Below, one piece after another: positions 2,110 through 9,540 of a stretch of DNA of 64,000 nt (its first letter is position 1; every line of letters starts with the position of its first letter). The translations under genes and the position numbers were made by a program. The notes beneath the pieces were generated by a model that saw nothing but the letters and a program-made list of their open reading frames with translations, was not told the origin of the DNA and did no database searches. Source of the DNA: Natrialba magadii ATCC 43099. GTDB lineage: Archaea > Halobacteriota > Halobacteria > Halobacteriales > Natrialbaceae. The DNA lies in assembly GCF_000025625.1 (NCBI RefSeq), contig NC_013922.1, forward strand, positions 2,604,001 to 2,668,000. Reading direction: 5' to 3'.

Positions 2110-3945
2110 TCAGACGTGCTCGTCGAGGAAATCTGCAATCTCAGAGTACGCTTCGATCCGGTTCTCGAGCTTCGAGAAGCCATGCCCCTCGTCGTCGAAG
2201 AGCAGTTTGCGGACCGGAACGCCCTGCTCCGCCGCCTCCTCGGCGATCTGTTCGGCCTCACCGACCGGCACGCGCGGGTCGTTCTCGCCGTGAAGGACGA
2301 ACAGCGGTGCCTCGATCTGCTCGACGTTGTTGATCGGCGAAATTTCCTCCAGGAACTCCCGGTCCTCTGCGAGCGAGCCGTACTCCGCCTCGCGTAGTTC
2401 GCGACGCCAGTCGCCGGTGTTCTCGAGGAAAGTGACGAAGTTGGCGATGCCGACGATGTCGATGCCGGCTGCCCAGAGGTCGGGATACTCGGTCAGCGAG
2501 GCGAGCACCATGAAGCCGCCGTAGGAGCCGCCCTTCGCGACGATGCGGTCAGGATCGACGGCCGGGTGATTCTGCAACCACTCCACGCAGGCTTTGATGT
2601 CCGTGACGGAGTCCATCCGCTTTTCGACGTCATCGAGTGCGGCGTAGTCAGCTCCGTAGCCCGCCGAGCCGCGAACGTTCGGCTCGAAGTAGCCGTAGCC
2701 CCGGTCGAGGAAGTACTGCTTGACGCTGGAGAAAGATGGCCGGCGCTGGCTCTCGGGACCACCGTGGATGTCGACGATCACTGGCGCGCCGTCGTCGCTG
2801 CCAGCCCCGGCTTCGTTCTCCCCGTCCGGAAGCGTGAGAAAGCCCGGCACCTCCAGCCCGTCGAAGCTCTCGATGTGGACGAGTTCTGACTCGTCGAACG
2901 TCTCCCGCGGAATCCCCGCCGTCGGCGCGCTCGTCCAGCGCTCGGCCTCGCCGGTCTCGATATCGACGACGAAGACGTTCGTGTTGACCGTATCGCCGGT
3001 GGTCGACAGCGCGAATCGTTCGGCGTCAGGATCGAAGCTTACGCCGCCGGAAACGCCTCCCGGCAGGTCGGGTTCAGGGAACTCCTCGAATTCTGTGGGG
3101 GCGTCCGTATCGAACTCGCCGACGGTCAACTCCGTATAGCCCTCTACGTTCTGCGAGTAGACGAACCGCCCCGTCTCATCGTCCAGCGCAATGCCGTCGA
3201 CGTTCCACTCGTCAGCGACGACGGACTCGAGTGCCCCCGACTCGAGATCGAGGTAGGCCAGATAGAGGGTATCGGTGTCGCCGTGGTCGGTCACAAGGTA
3301 GATACCCTCGCCATCCGGTGCCCAGCTCGCGCTCTGATAGCGGACGTCGCCCTCGTGTGGAGTAAGGTGCTCGAGTGTTGGCTTCTCGGCTTCGAGGTCG
3401 AGTACGTACAGATCCTGGTCGAAGTTGGAGTAGGCCTGGGAAACGAGCAGGCGGGAGTCGTCGGGGCTCCAGCCGGACAGGGAGAGCCAGCCGTCGCCCT
3501 CGTAGACGAGTGCTGCCTCGTCGCCCGTTTCGTCCCGGTCCTGCACGTAGACGTCGAAGACGGCCTCGTCGCGGCGATTCGAGGTGAACGCGAACTGGTC
3601 GCCGTCGTGGCTCCAGCCGCCCCAGCGGTGTTTGGCGTCGGGCATCGCTGTCACGTTCTCGATTGTACCGGTTTCTGCGTCGAGTCGGAACAGTTGGGCG
3701 CGCTCGTTGCCACCCTCGTCCATGCCGAAGATTAGTTCCGGACGCTCTGGCGACCAGGAGGCAAACGTCACTCGTTCGTCGGCGAACGTTCGCTGCTCGG
3801 GCCACTCGCGAGGTCCGGTAAGCGTCCAGACCTGCGGCGTTCCCGTTGTATCCATTAGGAACGAGAGTTCGTCGCCGTCCGGACCAAACGAAGCCCCGTA
3901 GGCGCTGCGAATGTTGAGATAGCGTTCGATTTCGTACGCTGCCAT
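2110..3945 (-). CDS. S9 family (prolyl oligopeptidase-like) serine peptidase
   Basis: 611 residues in two parts. About residues 1-340 are WD/TolB-like beta-propeller repeats (WSPDD, WSHDGDQ, WAPDGEG) that gate access, followed by a C-terminal alpha/beta-hydrolase. The triad is visible: Ser474 in GGSYGG, Asp556 in HGENDPRVP and His588 in DEGHG. No signal peptide is seen, so it probably acts in the cytoplasm on short peptides, as acylaminoacyl or dipeptidyl peptidases do. The start chosen is the first in-frame ATG. Upstream (3946-4152) is a 207-base divergent spacer shared with the acidic membrane protein. Exact peptide specificity is not determinable. Confidence 0.9.
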   Translation of the reverse strand: MAAYEIERYLNIRSAYGASFGPDGDELSFLMDTTGTPQVWTLTGPREWPEQRTFADERVTFASWSPERPELIFGMDEGGNERAQLFRLDAETGTIENVTAMPDAKHRWGGWSHDGDQFAFTSNRRDEAVFDVYVQDRDETGDEAALVYEGDGWLSLSGWSPDDSRLLVSQAYSNFDQDLYVLDLEAEKPTLEHLTPHEGDVRYQSASWAPDGEGIYLVTDHGDTDTLYLAYLDLESGALESVVADEWNVDGIALDDETGRFVYSQNVEGYTELTVGEFDTDAPTEFEEFPEPDLPGGVSGGVSFDPDAERFALSTTGDTVNTNVFVVDIETGEAERWTSAPTAGIPRETFDESELVHIESFDGLEVPGFLTLPDGENEAGAGSDDGAPVIVDIHGGPESQRRPSFSSVKQYFLDRGYGYFEPNVRGSAGYGADYAALDDVEKRMDSVTDIKACVEWLQNHPAVDPDRIVAKGGSYGGFMVLASLTEYPDLWAAGIDIVGIANFVTFLENTGDWRRELREAEYGSLAEDREFLEEISPINNVEQIEAPLFVLHGENDPRVPVGEAEQIAEEAAEQGVPVRKLLFDDEGHGFSKLENRIEAYSEIADFLDEHV

Positions 3946-4152
3946 ACCAGACGCTGTGGCGTGGGACCCGGTAGTCGTTTGGGTTGCGGCGAGGCCCCCT
4001 CACAGTAGTCACGGACTAGCACTGCCTGGTACGTCGCCAATAGTCGCCACAGCCTCTCCCCACGTCATCGAGTGGGAACGCGACTTGATTCTGACTGCGG
4101 TGACGTGAATTGCTGTGCTTAACAAAGGCCGCTCGTCGTCCCTGTTCAGTCG

Positions 4153-4719
4153 ATGACAGCCGACGGCACGGATGGGACGGACACGAGGACGTCATCCATC
4201 ACCGGTCCACCGAACAGGCACACCACCGCAGGCACTGAACCGAGCAGCAGCGTCGGGGCGGTCGTCGTCACCATTCTAATCGTCCTCGTCGCCTTCGGCA
4301 TCACCGTCGCCGTCGTCGGACCGGACCTGCTGGGCAGCGACACCGACGCCACCACCACTGACGGCGACGTACTCGACTCCCTCGACACGACTGAAGGTGC
4401 TGGCGTGGGAGATTCGAACGAATCAGAGGCAGAGTCTGAGTCAGAACCAGAGTCAGAGTCCGAGCCAGAGTCTGAGTCAGAGTCCGACCCTGACCCAGAC
4501 GCAGGCGGTGACGATGGAGATGACGACCATGAGCAGGACGACGGCGACGCTGCCGATGCAGGCAGCAGTGACGAAACGACCAACGAGTCTGGGGCGGCCG
4601 ACGATAACTTGCCGGATGACGACAGCAATGAGACCGGTGGAGAGAGCGTCTTCGACGACTTCGACTCGCTCTTCGACGACATGTTCGACGACGATGACGC
4701 GAACGAAACAGACGGGTAG
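4153..4719 (+). CDS. Acidic single-pass membrane protein with Ser-Glu repeats
   Basis: 188 residues. About 35 polar residues precede one strong hydrophobic segment (VGAVVVTILIVLVAFGITVAVVG). The rest is disordered and acidic: a run of SE/PESE repeats at residues ~95-115 encoded by near-tandem GAGTC/GAACC DNA (about 4420-4490), then Asp/Gly/Asn-rich sequence. There is no Lys or Arg after residue ~25. The segment plus short N-terminus resembles archaeal pilin-like N-termini only superficially; I see no processing motif. A TTAACA box about 35 bases upstream suggests a short or absent leader. The next gene downstream is also a low-complexity surface-type protein. Function unknown. Confidence 0.6.
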   Translation: MTADGTDGTDTRTSSITGPPNRHTTAGTEPSSSVGAVVVTILIVLVAFGITVAVVGPDLLGSDTDATTTDGDVLDSLDTTEGAGVGDSNESEAESESEPESESEPESESESDPDPDAGGDDGDDDHEQDDGDAADAGSSDETTNESGAADDNLPDDDSNETGGESVFDDFDSLFDDMFDDDDANETDG

Positions 4720-5076: not shown

Positions 5077-6783
5077 GTGTCTGGTGACCATAACAAAGAC
5101 CACCTCTCTCAAGTGCTATCGTCGAGGGCCGCGTTGATGAGAGACATACTCGCACAGAAACCAGACGGACGCATAGGGCAGACAGACACACGAAAACGAC
5201 TGCTGGCGGGCTTCCTCACGATCGTCGTGGTAGTCGGGCTTACCATTGCGAGCGTCGGCGGGGCAGCAGCGATAGGGGCACAGGACGACGAGCCAGTGGA
5301 TTCTGAGCTCGGCGACGAACTCCTCGTCACAACGGACTGCGAGGACGAACCACACATCACGGTCGAGAATCCGACGGATAGCGATACCGAGCTGACGATG
5401 GACTGGACCTCCGAGTACGACCAGTTCCAGGTCCAGACACAGGGGCAGCTCCTGATGAATCTCCAGACTGAGAGTATCGCTACCGACGACGGTCAGGAGA
5501 CCACCCACTCACTGACCGTGACGGTGCCGGCGAACGACAACGTCACGTTCGTCGGTCTTCCTGACAGCACCTACGAATTCTCCGCGACCGCAGACGGCGA
5601 CGACGTCGGATTCGATGAGGACGAAGTGGTACTCGAGTGTGAGAGTGAGGTGGACACAGCGGAGCTGTCACTCGATGAGCTCATGGATCGGTACGGACCG
5701 AACGTTGTGCTCGTGTCGTTCGTGATGGATGATGTGGATGAGGAACCGGTTGATGATGCACCAGTGGATGAGCCGGAGAAAGACGATGATGCACTGGTTG
5801 ACGAGCCTGAAAAGGACGAGAAGGATGAGAAGGATGAGAAGGAGGATGATGCGCCAGAGAAGGACGAGAAAGAAGAGCCGGTGAAAGATGACGACGAGGC
5901 ACCGGTGGATGAACCGGAGAAGGAGGACGAGAAAGAAGAGCTAGTTGATGAGCCTGAAAAGGACGAGAAAGATGACGAGAAGCCAGTAACAGACGACGAG
6001 AAACAGGTTGACGAACCGGAGAAAGAAGGGCTAGTTGATGAGCCTGAAAAAGACGAGAAAGATGACGAGAAGCCAGTAACAGACGACGAGAAACAGGTTG
6101 ACGAACCGGAGAAAGAAGAGCCGGTTGATGAAAAGGACGAAGTCGAGGAGCGGGTGATTGACGAACCAGAGAAGGAAGAGAAAGACGACAAAGAAGAGGC
6201 TGAAGCCCTCGACGTTGAGGAGGACGAGAAGGACGACAAGGAGGAGAAAGACAAGGACAAGAAAGCCGACAAGAAGGACGACGATGAGAAAGATGAGAAA
6301 GATGTAGCGGCGCTGGAGGAGCCGGACGACGATAAGAAGGACGACAAGTACGAGAAAGACGACGATAAGAAGGACGACAAGTACGAGAAAGACGACGATA
6401 AGAAGGACGACAAGTACGAGAAAGACGACGATAAGAAGGACGACAAGTACGAGAAAGACGACGATAAGAAGGACGCTGAACCTCTCGACGTTGAGGACGA
6501 AGACGAGAAGGACGAGAAAGACGACGACAAGAAGGAGAAGAAAGCGGATGAAAAGAAACACGATGACAAGAAGGACGACGATAAGAAGGACAAGAAAGAC
6601 AAAAAAGACGACAAGAAGGACGAACCTGACGCAGAAGCGCTAGAGGAGCCGGAGGAGAAGGACAAGAAGTACGAGAAAGACGATAAAAAGAAGGCTGACG
6701 CGGGACACCAGGCCAGCGGCCCATCGTCGATGGTTGAGCAGTTCTCGGACGAAATTGAACTCGCGAACGAACTGTTCGACTGA
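5077..6783 (+). CDS. Secreted Lys/Asp/Glu-rich (KEKE-type) repeat protein
   Basis: 568 residues from GTG; an ATG at 5137 is an alternative start giving 548. A hydrophobic signal or anchor follows KR at about residues 44-68 and ends in AAAIGAQ. Residues ~70-225 look like a small beta-sandwich domain with two Cys residues that could pair. The remaining ~340 residues are a low-complexity tail of Lys, Asp, Glu, Pro and Val. It contains an exact-length 30-residue duplication (DNA 5941-6120) and four DDDKKDDKYEK units (6325-6456). Lysine is very abundant there, which is odd for a haloarchaeon. The final ~25 residues (VEQFSDEIELANELFD end) are non-repetitive. No sorting motif is seen. Function unknown; an extended surface or matrix protein is my guess. 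Confidence 0.65.
   Translation: MSGDHNKDHLSQVLSSRAALMRDILAQKPDGRIGQTDTRKRLLAGFLTIVVVVGLTIASVGGAAAIGAQDDEPVDSELGDELLVTTDCEDEPHITVENPTDSDTELTMDWTSEYDQFQVQTQGQLLMNLQTESIATDDGQETTHSLTVTVPANDNVTFVGLPDSTYEFSATADGDDVGFDEDEVVLECESEVDTAELSLDELMDRYGPNVVLVSFVMDDVDEEPVDDAPVDEPEKDDDALVDEPEKDEKDEKDEKEDDAPEKDEKEEPVKDDDEAPVDEPEKEDEKEELVDEPEKDEKDDEKPVTDDEKQVDEPEKEGLVDEPEKDEKDDEKPVTDDEKQVDEPEKEEPVDEKDEVEERVIDEPEKEEKDDKEEAEALDVEEDEKDDKEEKDKDKKADKKDDDEKDEKDVAALEEPDDDKKDDKYEKDDDKKDDKYEKDDDKKDDKYEKDDDKKDDKYEKDDDKKDAEPLDVEDEDEKDEKDDDKKEKKADEKKHDDKKDDDKKDKKDKKDDKKDEPDAEALEEPEEKDKKYEKDDKKKADAGHQASGPSSMVEQFSDEIELANELFD
5941..6120 (+). repeat. 90-bp tandem duplication inside the KEKE protein gene
   Basis: Two consecutive 90-base units begin with CTAGTTGATGAGCCTGAAAA at 5941 and 6031. 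They encode two nearly identical 30-residue blocks that differ at the last residue and a synonymous position. The reading frame is kept. Confidence 0.85.
6325..6474 (+). repeat. 33-bp tandem repeat, four units plus a partial
   Basis: Units start at 6325, 6358, 6391 and 6424, with a truncated fifth at 6457. Each encodes DDDKKDDKYEK. The unit length is a multiple of three, so copy-number change keeps the frame. Confidence 0.9.
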
Positions 6784-6962: not shown

Positions 6963-8024
6963 ATGCGAGTCGCGTTCGTCTCCGCTGAAACGGTTTTTCA
7001 CCGCGACACTGAGACGAACCGACGACTGCAGACCGTTGTCGAACTGCTTGATGAGGCCGGTCACGACGTCCACGTCTACTGTACGCAGTTTTGGGACGGC
7101 GAGCACGCAACGTTCGAACGCGAGGGACTCACGTACCACGGCGTTTCCGTCGAACTCGAGGCCACCGCCTCGTTTCTCGTTCGACTGCCGTTCGTCCTCG
7201 CCCGTGCGCGTCCCGATATCGTCCACGTCAGCGCACAGCGACCCGGACAGGTCATCGCGGCCAGTCTCGGTGCGACGCTGTCCAGAGCACCAATCGTCGC
7301 CGAGTGGTACGGCATGGACGGCATCCCAACGGACCGCTGGCACAAACTCGCCGCCCGATCCGTCGACCGAAGCCTCGTCCCCTCCGAACTCGTCGCAACC
7401 TGGGTTCGAGAACTCGGCGTGAGCGAACAGGCGGTCGACCCGATCGCCAATCCGATCGATGTCGAACGGATCCGCGACGTCGAACCTGGCGACCGGGCCG
7501 ACGTCATCTACGCCCGCCGCCTCGACGACGGAGCAAACCTCGAGAGCCTCCTGCTCGCGCTCGCCGAACACCGCGACCGCGACTGGCGGGCAACCGTCAT
7601 CGGCGACGGCCCCGAGCGCGAGGCGTACGAACGGCTCGCGAGCGACCTCCGGATCGAAGACCGAGTCACGTTCGCCGGCGACCTCTCACTCGGGGAGCGA
7701 ATCGCCGCCTACCGAGGCGCCCACGTCTTCGCCCAGACCGCAGAACACTGTGTCTTCCCGACGGAAATGCTCTGGGCGCTCGCCGCCGGCTGTGTCGGCG
7801 TCGTCGAGTACCACGCCAACTCGAGTGCCCACGAACTCGTCGAGGGCTGGGATCGGGGCTTCCGGACGACGAGCGAGGACGAACTCAGCGATGCGATTAT
7901 CGAGGCGGGGGGACTCGAGTACCAGGATGTCGACGACGAGTTCGACGAGTACGATCTGGCAGAGGTTCGGGATCGGTATCTGACGACGTATCGGGCGTTG
8001 CAGGATTCGTCGGGGCTGTTGTAG
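6963..8024 (+). CDS. Glycosyltransferase family 4 (GT-B fold)
   Basis: 353 residues. I chose ATG 6963 because MRVAFVSAETVFHRDTETNR is a typical GT4 N-terminus and a TTTTTATCC box lies about 33 bases upstream. The N-terminal half is the acceptor domain (residues ~1-165). The C-terminal half is the nucleotide-sugar domain with VIGDGPER, the VTFAGDL strand and a GCVGVVEY segment where the E of the usual EX7E motif sits. It would transfer an activated sugar to a lipid or protein acceptor at the inner membrane face. It is a single gene with no glycan cluster around it, so the substrate is unknown. Confidence 0.85.
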   Translation: MRVAFVSAETVFHRDTETNRRLQTVVELLDEAGHDVHVYCTQFWDGEHATFEREGLTYHGVSVELEATASFLVRLPFVLARARPDIVHVSAQRPGQVIAASLGATLSRAPIVAEWYGMDGIPTDRWHKLAARSVDRSLVPSELVATWVRELGVSEQAVDPIANPIDVERIRDVEPGDRADVIYARRLDDGANLESLLLALAEHRDRDWRATVIGDGPEREAYERLASDLRIEDRVTFAGDLSLGERIAAYRGAHVFAQTAEHCVFPTEMLWALAAGCVGVVEYHANSSAHELVEGWDRGFRTTSEDELSDAIIEAGGLEYQDVDDEFDEYDLAEVRDRYLTTYRALQDSSGLL

Positions 8025-8670: not shown

Positions 8671-8736
8671 GGCTCTGTTGAAACACTTAGTCTTTGATAG
8701 GTTTTAGTAGCCGTGTTGAATACACAGCGCGTCTCT
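8671..8736 (+). mobile_element. Left element-end-like segment (inverted with 9752-9817)
   Basis: It begins GGCTCTGTTGAAA and, 44 bases in, has GTTGAATACACAGCGCGT. The reverse complement of 9752-9817 begins GGTTCTGTTGAAA and has GCTGAATACAGAGCGTGT 39 bases in. The two therefore share a terminal 13-mer (12 of 13) and an internal block (about 14 of 16) in inverted orientation. No transposase is present. I infer ends of a decayed or non-autonomous transposon. Confidence 0.45.
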
Positions 8737-8850
8737 TCCACGGGGGTTCGGTCTATTTGTGGTTTCTGTGATCGGTCAAGAGGGCGAGTAGTGCGAAACC
8801 GTTCTGCAGACCCAGTATATCAGTGGCCTCGACAGTCGAACACTGACGAT

Positions 8851-8910
8851 GTACTGGTACTGGTACTGGTACTGGTACTGGTACTGGTACTGGGACTGGT
8901 ACTGGTACTA
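8851..8910 (+). repeat. (GTACTG)n hexamer microsatellite
   Basis: About ten tandem GTACTG units with one substitution (GGACTG at 8893). The run ends at the stop codon of the convergent methyltransferase gene (CTA at 8908-8910). Confidence 0.9.
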
Positions 8911-9540
8911 CGTGCGATCGAGTGTTGCATCGAAGAAAATCCAGCTTGCCTCCTCGTCCTCAGCAAGTGTATTCGGAGCGCCGTACTCGGTTTCGATCTG
9001 AAACCCTGCGTTCTCCAGTTGCACTCGGGTCGCCTCAGCACCGGCAATGTACCACTGCATCTCGGTAGCAGCGTCTAACCAATCCGGATTCGTCCCCTGC
9101 CATTCGCCGGGGCCTTCCGACACGAGTAGCTGACCACCTGGACGAAGCACCCGTGCAAACTCGTCAATGACTGCCTGGTGTTCCCCGGCCGGGACGTGGA
9201 TCAACGAGTGGTAGGCAAGCACAGCATCAACTGTGCTGTCGGGTAGCGGTAATCGAGTCATATCGCCACGCAGCAATCTCGCTTCCGGAGCATTCGACTG
9301 AGCCTTCTCCAGCTGTTGTGCAGAAAAGTCAAGCCCGATTGCCCGTTGTGACTGGCTGCTCAGGTGCTGGAGCACTGGCTCTCCCCCTCCACAACCAGCG
9401 TCCAACACCCGTGACTCAGTCGGAATTTTCTTCAGAAACGAGGCCAGGGCCTTCTGCTCCGCATCGCTCGGCGATCTCTCCTCGGCATACACATCCGCAA
9501 TATCCTCGTATCCCTGTAACACCACTTCTTTATCAACCAT
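8908..9540 (-). CDS. Class I SAM-dependent methyltransferase (Methyltransf_11 type)
   Basis: 210 residues. SAM-binding motif I is VLDAGCGGGEP near residue 44, followed by the acidic residue in AIGLDFS, DMTRLPLPDSTVDAVLA (motifs II/III) and VLRPGGQLLVSEGPG (post-motif III). Such enzymes methylate small molecules; the acceptor is not predictable. The gene is more A/T-rich than its neighbours, its 3' end abuts a hexamer microsatellite, and the gene lies between two inverted element-end-like segments, so horizontal acquisition is plausible. The start is the only ATG before motif I. Confidence 0.85.
   Translation of the reverse strand: MVDKEVVLQGYEDIADVYAEERSPSDAEQKALASFLKKIPTESRVLDAGCGGGEPVLQHLSSQSQRAIGLDFSAQQLEKAQSNAPEARLLRGDMTRLPLPDSTVDAVLAYHSLIHVPAGEHQAVIDEFARVLRPGGQLLVSEGPGEWQGTNPDWLDAATEMQWYIAGAEATRVQLENAGFQIETEYGAPNTLAEDEEASWIFFDATLDRT

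What the first reader, a model, noticed from the sequence alone, without database searches (positions are those of the whole stretch)
5077..6783. Lysine-rich KEKE repeat tail on a secreted protein in a salt-in proteome
Seen: a signal-like segment, a ~155-residue two-Cys domain and ~340 residues of K, D, E, P and V. Haloarchaeal proteins are usually poor in Lys and strongly acidic; a dense mix of Lys with Asp/Glu is against that trend and suggests a special purpose (charge-patterned polymer, mineral or polymer binding, or phase separation). The neighbour at 4153 is also a surface-type low-complexity protein.
Basis: partly seen in the sequence, partly recalled or inferred. Interest (0 to 1): 0.6.

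Follow-up and report, generated by a model that had tools for sequence, protein, structure and literature searches.

The report
Lysine-acid bristle protein of haloarchaeal envelope
A salt-loving archaeon, whose proteins almost never use lysine, makes an exported protein with a long unfolded tail packed with lysine and acids; close relatives keep that odd make-up while the sequence drifts, and the gene shares its promoter signal with an all-acid partner and a fibre-like protein, which points to a dedicated surface-coat material.

Summary
The true start is ATG 5137 (548 aa), not GTG 5077. The tail is 20% Lys, 50% Asp/Glu and still net acidic (-0.29 per residue). Lys is 14.1% of the ORF as listed, against 1.7% on average in 763 sampled genes of the same genome.

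It belongs to a Natrialbaceae family (24 of 125 genomes) with no Pfam or NCBIfam hit: hydrophobic export segment, Ig/Fn3-like two-Cys domain, variable tail. Of 23 members examined, 16 have Lys/Asp/Glu tails built from unrelated repeats, 6 have a short or no tail, and one is Asp/Glu/Gly/Asn-rich. The gene sits between an S9 peptidase and a GT4 glycosyltransferase, usually beside an acidic-tail gene whose tails hold 0 Lys in about 3,455 residues.

New here: a conserved box (CATAACAAAG) precedes this gene in every member checked. Related forms precede the acidic neighbour and a widespread secreted Gln/Asn-repeat protein that carries its own Lys/Asp insert in several genomes.

Best reading: an envelope or matrix polyampholyte co-expressed with a polyanion and a fibre-like protein. 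Composition, conservation and box are shown; location, co-expression and function are inferred. A simple link to alkaliphily was not supported.

The parts
5137..6783 (+). CDS of the Lys/Asp/Glu-tail protein, 548 aa, start ATG (conserved ATGAGAGAC)
   Evidence: Conserved start and upstream box in relatives; domain under purifying selection
5089..5098 (+). Promoter-like box CATAACAAAG, 38 nt between its end and the ATG; preceded by TGTCTG at 5078-5083
   Evidence: ATAACAAAG found upstream of the gene in every one of 23 members; CATAACAAAGN{30,60}ATGNGNGA gives 17 hits in 16 of 125 genomes, all at this gene, reversed control 0
5200..5271 (+). Hydrophobic segment (residues 22-45), Sec-type signal peptide or signal anchor; followed by small residues GGAAAIGA
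   Evidence: Sequence; conserved position in alignment A1. Cleavage not tested
5314..5643 (+). Two-Cys Ig/Fn3-like beta-sandwich domain (residues 60-169; invariant Cys68 and Cys168)
   Evidence: Alignment of 21 members; predicted all-beta fold, pLDDT 71, pTM 0.66; nearest PDB folds are generic beta-sandwiches, Z at most 7.8
5644..5736 (+). Linker (residues 170-200), strongly conserved within Natrialba, short predicted helix and strand
5737..6702 (+). Lys/Asp/Glu tail (residues 201-522): PEVK-like first half, DDKKDDKYEK-type second half
6325..6475 (+). 33-bp tandem repeat, 4.6 copies, 100% matches (DDDKKDDKYEK)
6703..6780 (+). C-terminal 26 residues GHQASGPSSMVEQFSDEIELANELFD, conserved in the four Natrialba members with the gene
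4153..4719 (+). Neighbour: acidic-tail protein (188 aa), hydrophobic segment near the N terminus, tail 41% Asp+Glu with no Lys
4118..4127 (+). Box CTTAACAAAG of the acidic-tail gene, 25 nt before its ATG
6963..8024 (+). GT4-type glycosyltransferase gene, conserved downstream neighbour
   Evidence: Pfam PF13439/PF00534; synteny
2110..3945 (-). S9-family peptidase gene, conserved divergent upstream neighbour
   Evidence: Pfam PF00326; synteny

Best explanation
An exported cell-envelope protein. A membrane-proximal or secreted two-Cys Ig/Fn3-like domain carries a long, disordered, charge-mixed Lys/Asp/Glu tail that stands out from the cell as a hydrated polyampholyte bristle. It is made together with a purely acidic tail protein and a secreted Gln/Asn-repeat, fibre-like protein under a shared promoter box (TAACAAAG). 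In near-saturated salt, where long-range charge effects are screened, the lysines make many weak short-range contacts with Asp/Glu-rich partners (the neighbour, the acidic envelope), helping to build or hold a surface coat or extracellular matrix. SHOWN by sequence: the composition and its contrast with the proteome; the domain family; composition kept while tail sequence turns over; the conserved box in front of three exported-protein families; synteny. INFERRED: export and surface location, disorder of the tail, co-expression, the Lys-acid contacts, and the matrix role.
For: Lys outlier in its own genome. 16 of 23 members have Lys/Asp/Glu tails of 112-414 aa with different repeat units (PEVK-like, DDKK, EKDE, VEKKTEKEP), while every domain is Lys-poor. 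Adjacent acidic tails, with an ample supply of single-step Glu-to-Lys mutations, hold 0 Lys in about 3,455 residues (leaving out the broken G047 copy), so Lys is kept here and kept out there. Box: found upstream of all 23 members, CTTAACAAAG or a close form before the acidic gene in 18 genomes at 24-30 nt from the ATG, GATAACAAAG in 29 of 30 genomes before the Gln/Asn-repeat protein. WTAACAAAG occurs only 13 times in the genome; besides these three genes it lies 15-45 nt before two phosphodiesterase-like genes, a Gfo/Idh-type oxidoreductase and a PadR-like regulator. The Gln/Asn-repeat protein holds a Lys/Asp insert of up to 18 Lys per 30 aa, larger in genomes with the Lys tail. Charges are mixed more evenly than in shuffles in all 16 Lys tails.
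Against: No expression, localisation or interaction data were available. WTAACAAAG is not enriched genome-wide (13 sites; reversed control 20). The gene is absent from about 80% of Natrialbaceae and six members have a short or no tail, so the tail is dispensable for the domain. The acidic partner is not adjacent in G038, G040, G041, G099, G016 and G036, though weak relatives lie elsewhere in G040, G041, G099 and G118. The link between Lys insert and Lys tail is not phylogenetically independent: it fails within genus g16.
Confidence: 0.45

Rival explanations
1. Selfish or neutral repeat growth: slippage expands an Asp/Glu-rich repeat in which Glu-to-Lys changes are tolerated; the tail has no job beyond being soluble.
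For: Perfect 33-bp repeats; tails of 0 to 414 aa, unalignable between genera; N. magadii has the highest low-complexity content among Archaea surveyed (PMC6821194); tail reading frames appear lost at the ends in G081 and G109.
Against: Tails built from unrelated units in at least eight genera arrive at the same Lys/Asp/Glu mix, whereas the acidic tail next door, open to the same mutations, has no Lys in 17 genomes. Shuffle test shows even charge mixing in all Lys tails, though repeats exaggerate its significance.
Confidence: 0.2
2. Adaptation to alkaline brines: lysine is favoured outside the cell at high pH.
For: N. magadii is an obligate alkaliphile (PMC3403918); within Natrialba four genomes have the gene and three lack it.
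Against: Halobiforma lacisalsi AJ5 (G081), to my knowledge not an alkaliphile, has a Lys-rich tail, while Natrarchaeobaculum sulfurireducens (G037), to my knowledge a haloalkaliphile, has a tailless copy (identities by plasmid match). The acidic neighbour in the same organism has no Lys. The pH preferences are recalled, not looked up.
Confidence: 0.08
3. Hydration or desiccation protectant comparable in effect to plant LEA proteins or dehydrins: the tail buffers water and ions at the surface when the brine dries or is diluted, without specific partners.
For: Extremely hydrophilic, strongly charged, Pro-containing and well-mixed tail; polyampholytes are expected to swell in salt (polymer physics, general knowledge).
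Against: No LEA or dehydrin family hit; it does not explain the shared box with a fibre-like protein, nor the opposite Lys rule of the neighbour.
Confidence: 0.15
4. Charge-patterned condensate former.
For: Long low-complexity polyampholyte of fraction charged 0.70.
Against: Charge segregation is lower than in shuffles (z -3.8 for this tail; negative in all 16 Lys tails); few aromatic residues; high salt screens charge-driven coacervation (general knowledge).
Confidence: 0.07

Closest known systems
KEKE motifs of triadin and junctin, which bind the Asp-rich tail of calsequestrin (muscle)
   Same: Short N-terminal part, one hydrophobic segment, then a Lys/Glu/Asp-rich region on the far side of the membrane; disordered; partner is a highly acidic protein (PMC3427183). 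Segments of this tail meet the published motif definition.
   Different: No sequence homology was found or expected; this protein has an Ig/Fn3-like domain, a much longer tail, and works in molar salt; binding to the acidic neighbour is untested.
PEVK region of titin
   Same: Pro/Glu/Val/Lys-rich polyampholyte, strikingly so in the first half of this tail and in G099 (recalled comparison).
   Different: PEVK lies between folded domains under tension; here the tail is C-terminal and free.
Acidic low-complexity surface proteins of haloarchaea, such as the neighbour at 4153
   Same: Hydrophobic N-terminal segment, long charged low-complexity tail, similar promoter box.
   Different: Those tails have essentially no Lys; this one has 20%.
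Lys-rich repeats of exported Plasmodium proteins (PMC5207086)
   Same: Fast-growing Lys-rich tandem repeats on exported proteins (abstract).
   Different: Unrelated organism, location and function.
Ig/Fn3-like beta-sandwich modules of surface proteins
   Same: Predicted fold of the N-terminal domain; sub-threshold Pfam hits to fn3_5 and NPCBM_assoc in relatives.
   Different: No family passes its cut-off; fold matches are generic.

Membership tests
KEKE motif (definition as given in PMC3427183) | More than 12 residues, no W/Y/F/P, no five like charges in a row, over 60% K and E/D | tested here: met
   136 of 380 tail residues covered, longest stretch 51 aa; the definition is compositional and loose
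Triadin/junctin family | Sequence homology to triadin or junctin | tested here: not met
   No Pfam or NCBIfam family at E up to 1; the comparison is of mode of action only
Triadin/junctin family | Binding of the Lys/Glu region to an acidic partner protein | not testable with these tools
   Needs purified proteins at high salt
Ig/Fn3-like domain families (Pfam fn3_5, NPCBM_assoc) | Score above the curated cut-off | tested here: not met
   Best 18.8 bits against 27.6 for fn3_5, in a relative
Ig/Fn3-like beta-sandwich fold | Structural match clearly above background | tested here: inconclusive
   All-beta model, pLDDT 71 from 3 sequences; best Z 7.8, generic
LEA/dehydrin proteins | Pfam LEA or dehydrin match | tested here: not met
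   No match in Pfam
Natrialbaceae Lys-tail envelope family described here | MRD start, hydrophobic segment, invariant Cys pair with NP and GLxDGTY motifs | tested here: met
   Alignment A1; 24 of 125 genomes
Natrialbaceae Lys-tail envelope family described here | Upstream box ATAACAAAG about 36-48 nt before the start, and position between S9 peptidase and GT4 genes | tested here: met

The most novel reading that the evidence does not exclude
Natrialbaceae build an extracellular coat from a matched set of low-complexity polymers with opposite rules for lysine (a Lys-free polyanion and a Lys-rich polyampholyte) plus a Gln/Asn-repeat fibre-like protein with Lys/Asp inserts, switched on together through a dedicated TAACAAAG promoter box that also precedes some polysaccharide-type genes.
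Probability: 0.25. Interest if true: 0.75.

Novelty: new variant of a known kind. Interest (0 to 1): 0.5.

Why it matters
Haloarchaea are the textbook case of proteins that avoid lysine. A family that keeps about 7-27% Lys in an exported tail, next to a gene whose tail holds none, gives a natural paired experiment on what lysine does in a saturated-salt environment. If the shared promoter box is real, it also marks a small set of envelope genes whose co-regulation and role in a surface matrix can be tested directly.

Tried and rejected
Pfam and NCBIfam scans of the protein, its domain and the neighbour: nothing above cut-off. Solved structures by sequence profile: one meaningless hit. Fold search: only generic beta-sandwiches, and no claim on function is drawn from it. 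Search of 391 haloarchaeal genomes with the domain profile: outside Natrialbaceae only short, weak pieces of repeated beta-domains. Tail used as a query in 242 genomes: only itself, but low-complexity scoring and a candidate limit make this weak. Alkaliphily as the cause: two named genomes go the wrong way. Two further plasmid matches failed to name their genome. Literature: no paper found on haloarchaeal polyampholytes or on a haloarchaeal Lys-rich tail of this kind. The published N. magadii proteomics (PMID 29888524, cited in PMC7613761) was not searched for and not read here, so expression is unknown. A first version of the script on the Gln/Asn-repeat loci crashed after 22 genomes and was rerun with changed settings. 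Structure prediction used only the window sequence and two search for related loci relatives, because its rule does not name loci from other tools.

Full report
WHAT WAS CHECKED. The window lies in a genome of 4,443,643 bases whose replicon sizes (3,751,858, 378,348 and 254,950 were seen) equal those published for Natrialba magadii ATCC 43099 (PMC3403918). The ORF 5077-6783 is present as described.

START AND ANATOMY. Relatives share ATGAGAGAC as their start, at window 5137 here, so the protein is 548 aa. Residues 22-45 are a hydrophobic export segment; whether it is cleaved was not tested. Residues 60-169 form a domain with two invariant Cys (68, 168) and conserved NP and GLxDGTY motifs. AlphaFold2 with three sequences gives an all-beta domain (pLDDT 71, pTM 0.66); fold comparison finds only generic Ig/Fn3-like sandwiches (Z at most 7.8). 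The tail follows, then a 26-residue C-terminal stretch conserved in the Natrialba members.

COMPOSITION. From the second Cys to the end the protein has 20.3% Lys, 27.4% Asp, 22.1% Glu, net charge -0.29 per residue; the part before has 1.2% Lys. In 763 genes called by a simple codon-position rule from 1.26 Mb, mean Lys is 1.67% (sd 1.40%); this ORF, at 14.1%, is the highest. Other stretches dense in Lys plus Asp/Glu in that sample were a 46-codon microsatellite frame, two that look like cytoplasmic coiled-coil proteins (one resembles GrpE, judged by eye), and one exported protein discussed below (the stretch holding the latter was added on purpose).

THE FAMILY. The domain is found in 24 of 125 Natrialbaceae genomes and, as a full domain, not outside them in 391 haloarchaeal genomes. 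Of 23 members examined, 16 carry Lys/Asp/Glu tails with 7-27% Lys, six have a short or no tail (G011, G012, G016, G035, G036, G037), and G055 has an Asp/Glu/Gly/Asn tail with 3.5% Lys. Repeat units differ between genera. On a tree of the domain the tail class changes at least four times, and the label is not clearly clustered (60 of 500 shuffles as low), so gains and losses are frequent. Domain dN/dS is 0.18-0.23 for this gene against two other Natrialba genomes; other pairs range from 0.04 to 0.43. Tail values are unreliable because repeats align arbitrarily.

NEIGHBOURHOOD. The order S9 peptidase (divergent), tail genes, GT4 glycosyltransferase is kept across most genomes with the gene, usually followed by HIT and TrpB genes, and in many genomes without it. 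Between them most genomes have an acidic-tail gene like the one at 4153. In 17 intact copies its tails contain no Lys in about 3,455 residues (total printed 3,709 with 17 Lys, of which the broken G047 copy accounts for 254 residues and all 17 Lys). Glu and Lys codons differ by one transition, so this contrast argues that lysine is kept in one tail and kept out of the other. In G038, G040, G041, G099, G016 and G036 there is no room for the acidic gene at the locus; weak relatives exist elsewhere in some of these genomes.

THE BOX. ATAACAAAG precedes the Lys-tail gene in all 23 members, including tailless ones. A pattern of box plus start finds only this gene in 125 genomes (17 hits in 16 genomes, reversed control none). 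The acidic gene has CTTAACAAAG or a near form 24-30 nt before its ATG in 18 genomes, the spacing expected of a TATA-like element in front of a leaderless or nearly leaderless transcript (inference). In the own genome WTAACAAAG occurs 13 times, no more than its reversed control (20), so the word is not enriched as such. Its positions are the point: several sites lie 15-45 nt before gene starts: the two tail genes, a Gfo/Idh-type oxidoreductase and a phosphodiesterase (PF01663) side by side, a second phosphodiesterase-like gene, a PadR-like regulator (PF03551), and a secreted 556-aa protein. A DUF1616 gene, itself preceded by a PadR-like gene, has the box 85 nt upstream of its ATG. These assignments are by inspection and were not tested against a formal null.

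THE GLN/ASN-REPEAT PROTEIN. The 556-aa protein (C1, about 183.2-184.85 kb, minus strand) has a signal-like segment, Gln/Asn/Ala repeats suggestive of a beta-solenoid or fibre (by eye; no Pfam or NCBIfam hit), and a Lys/Asp stretch DKKYDKKDKKYDKKHDDKKDKK. It is found in 99 of 125 Natrialbaceae genomes. GATAACAAAG stands 45-61 nt before the matched start in 29 of 30 genomes read. The most Lys in 30 residues is 4-18 in genomes with a Lys tail and 1-9 in those without (Mann-Whitney p 0.0005). This is not corrected for descent; within Natrialba it holds, within genus g16 it does not. The region and window for this count were set after the first look at these loci.

CHARGE PATTERN. In all 16 Lys tails local charge segregation is below shuffles (z from -1.2 to -5.3), meaning evenly mixed charges. 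Repeats are not independent sites, so only the direction is used. It favours a swollen, well-solvated chain over blocky, sticky charge patterning.

MECHANISM. Most likely the protein is an envelope-bound or secreted polyampholyte bristle made together with an acidic polymer and a fibre-like protein. The nearest analogue in mode of action is the triadin/junctin KEKE region, which binds the acidic protein calsequestrin (PMC3427183); segments of this tail meet the KEKE definition. This is a resemblance in working, not membership. Neutral repeat growth and a LEA-like hydration role remain open. Alkaliphily as the simple cause is not supported by two named genomes, the pH preferences being recalled.

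LIMITS. No expression, localisation or binding data. Gene calls for the Lys census are approximate and cover 28% of the genome. Many choices (windows, thresholds, spacing ranges) were made while looking at the data, and some analyses were rerun with changed settings; p-values are descriptive.

Noticed in passing
G000:C1 about 183200-184850 (-), L190/L002/L243: Secreted Gln/Asn-repeat protein, 556 aa, no Pfam or NCBIfam hit, in 99 of 125 Natrialbaceae genomes, with the same promoter box and a Lys/Asp insert of varying size.
   Followed up: partly
G000:C1:3098403, 3114656, 3115987, 3141247, 2750316: WTAACAAAG boxes near a DUF1616 gene, a Gfo/Idh-type gene, two phosphodiesterase-like genes and a PadR-like regulator; another PadR-like gene lies just upstream of the DUF1616 gene.
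   Followed up: partly
L044 (G081) and L038 (G109), tail ends: Tails end in Arg-rich sequence that looks like the Lys/Asp repeat read in a shifted frame; a real frameshift or a sequencing error.
   Followed up: no
L088 (G047), 1555-2445: Acidic-tail gene holds an ambiguous codon (X) after which the frame turns Arg/Lys-rich: sequence gap or frameshift.
   Followed up: no
L196 2563-3009 (-): Asp/Glu/Met repeat protein (DDEM units) next to the box-bearing PadR-like gene.
   Followed up: no
L122 near 11010 (-): Short frame with a perfect KEKEKE microsatellite, probably not a gene.
   Followed up: no
window 8713-9078: ORF with a VLVLVLVL-type dinucleotide-like repeat, probably a chance frame.
   Followed up: no
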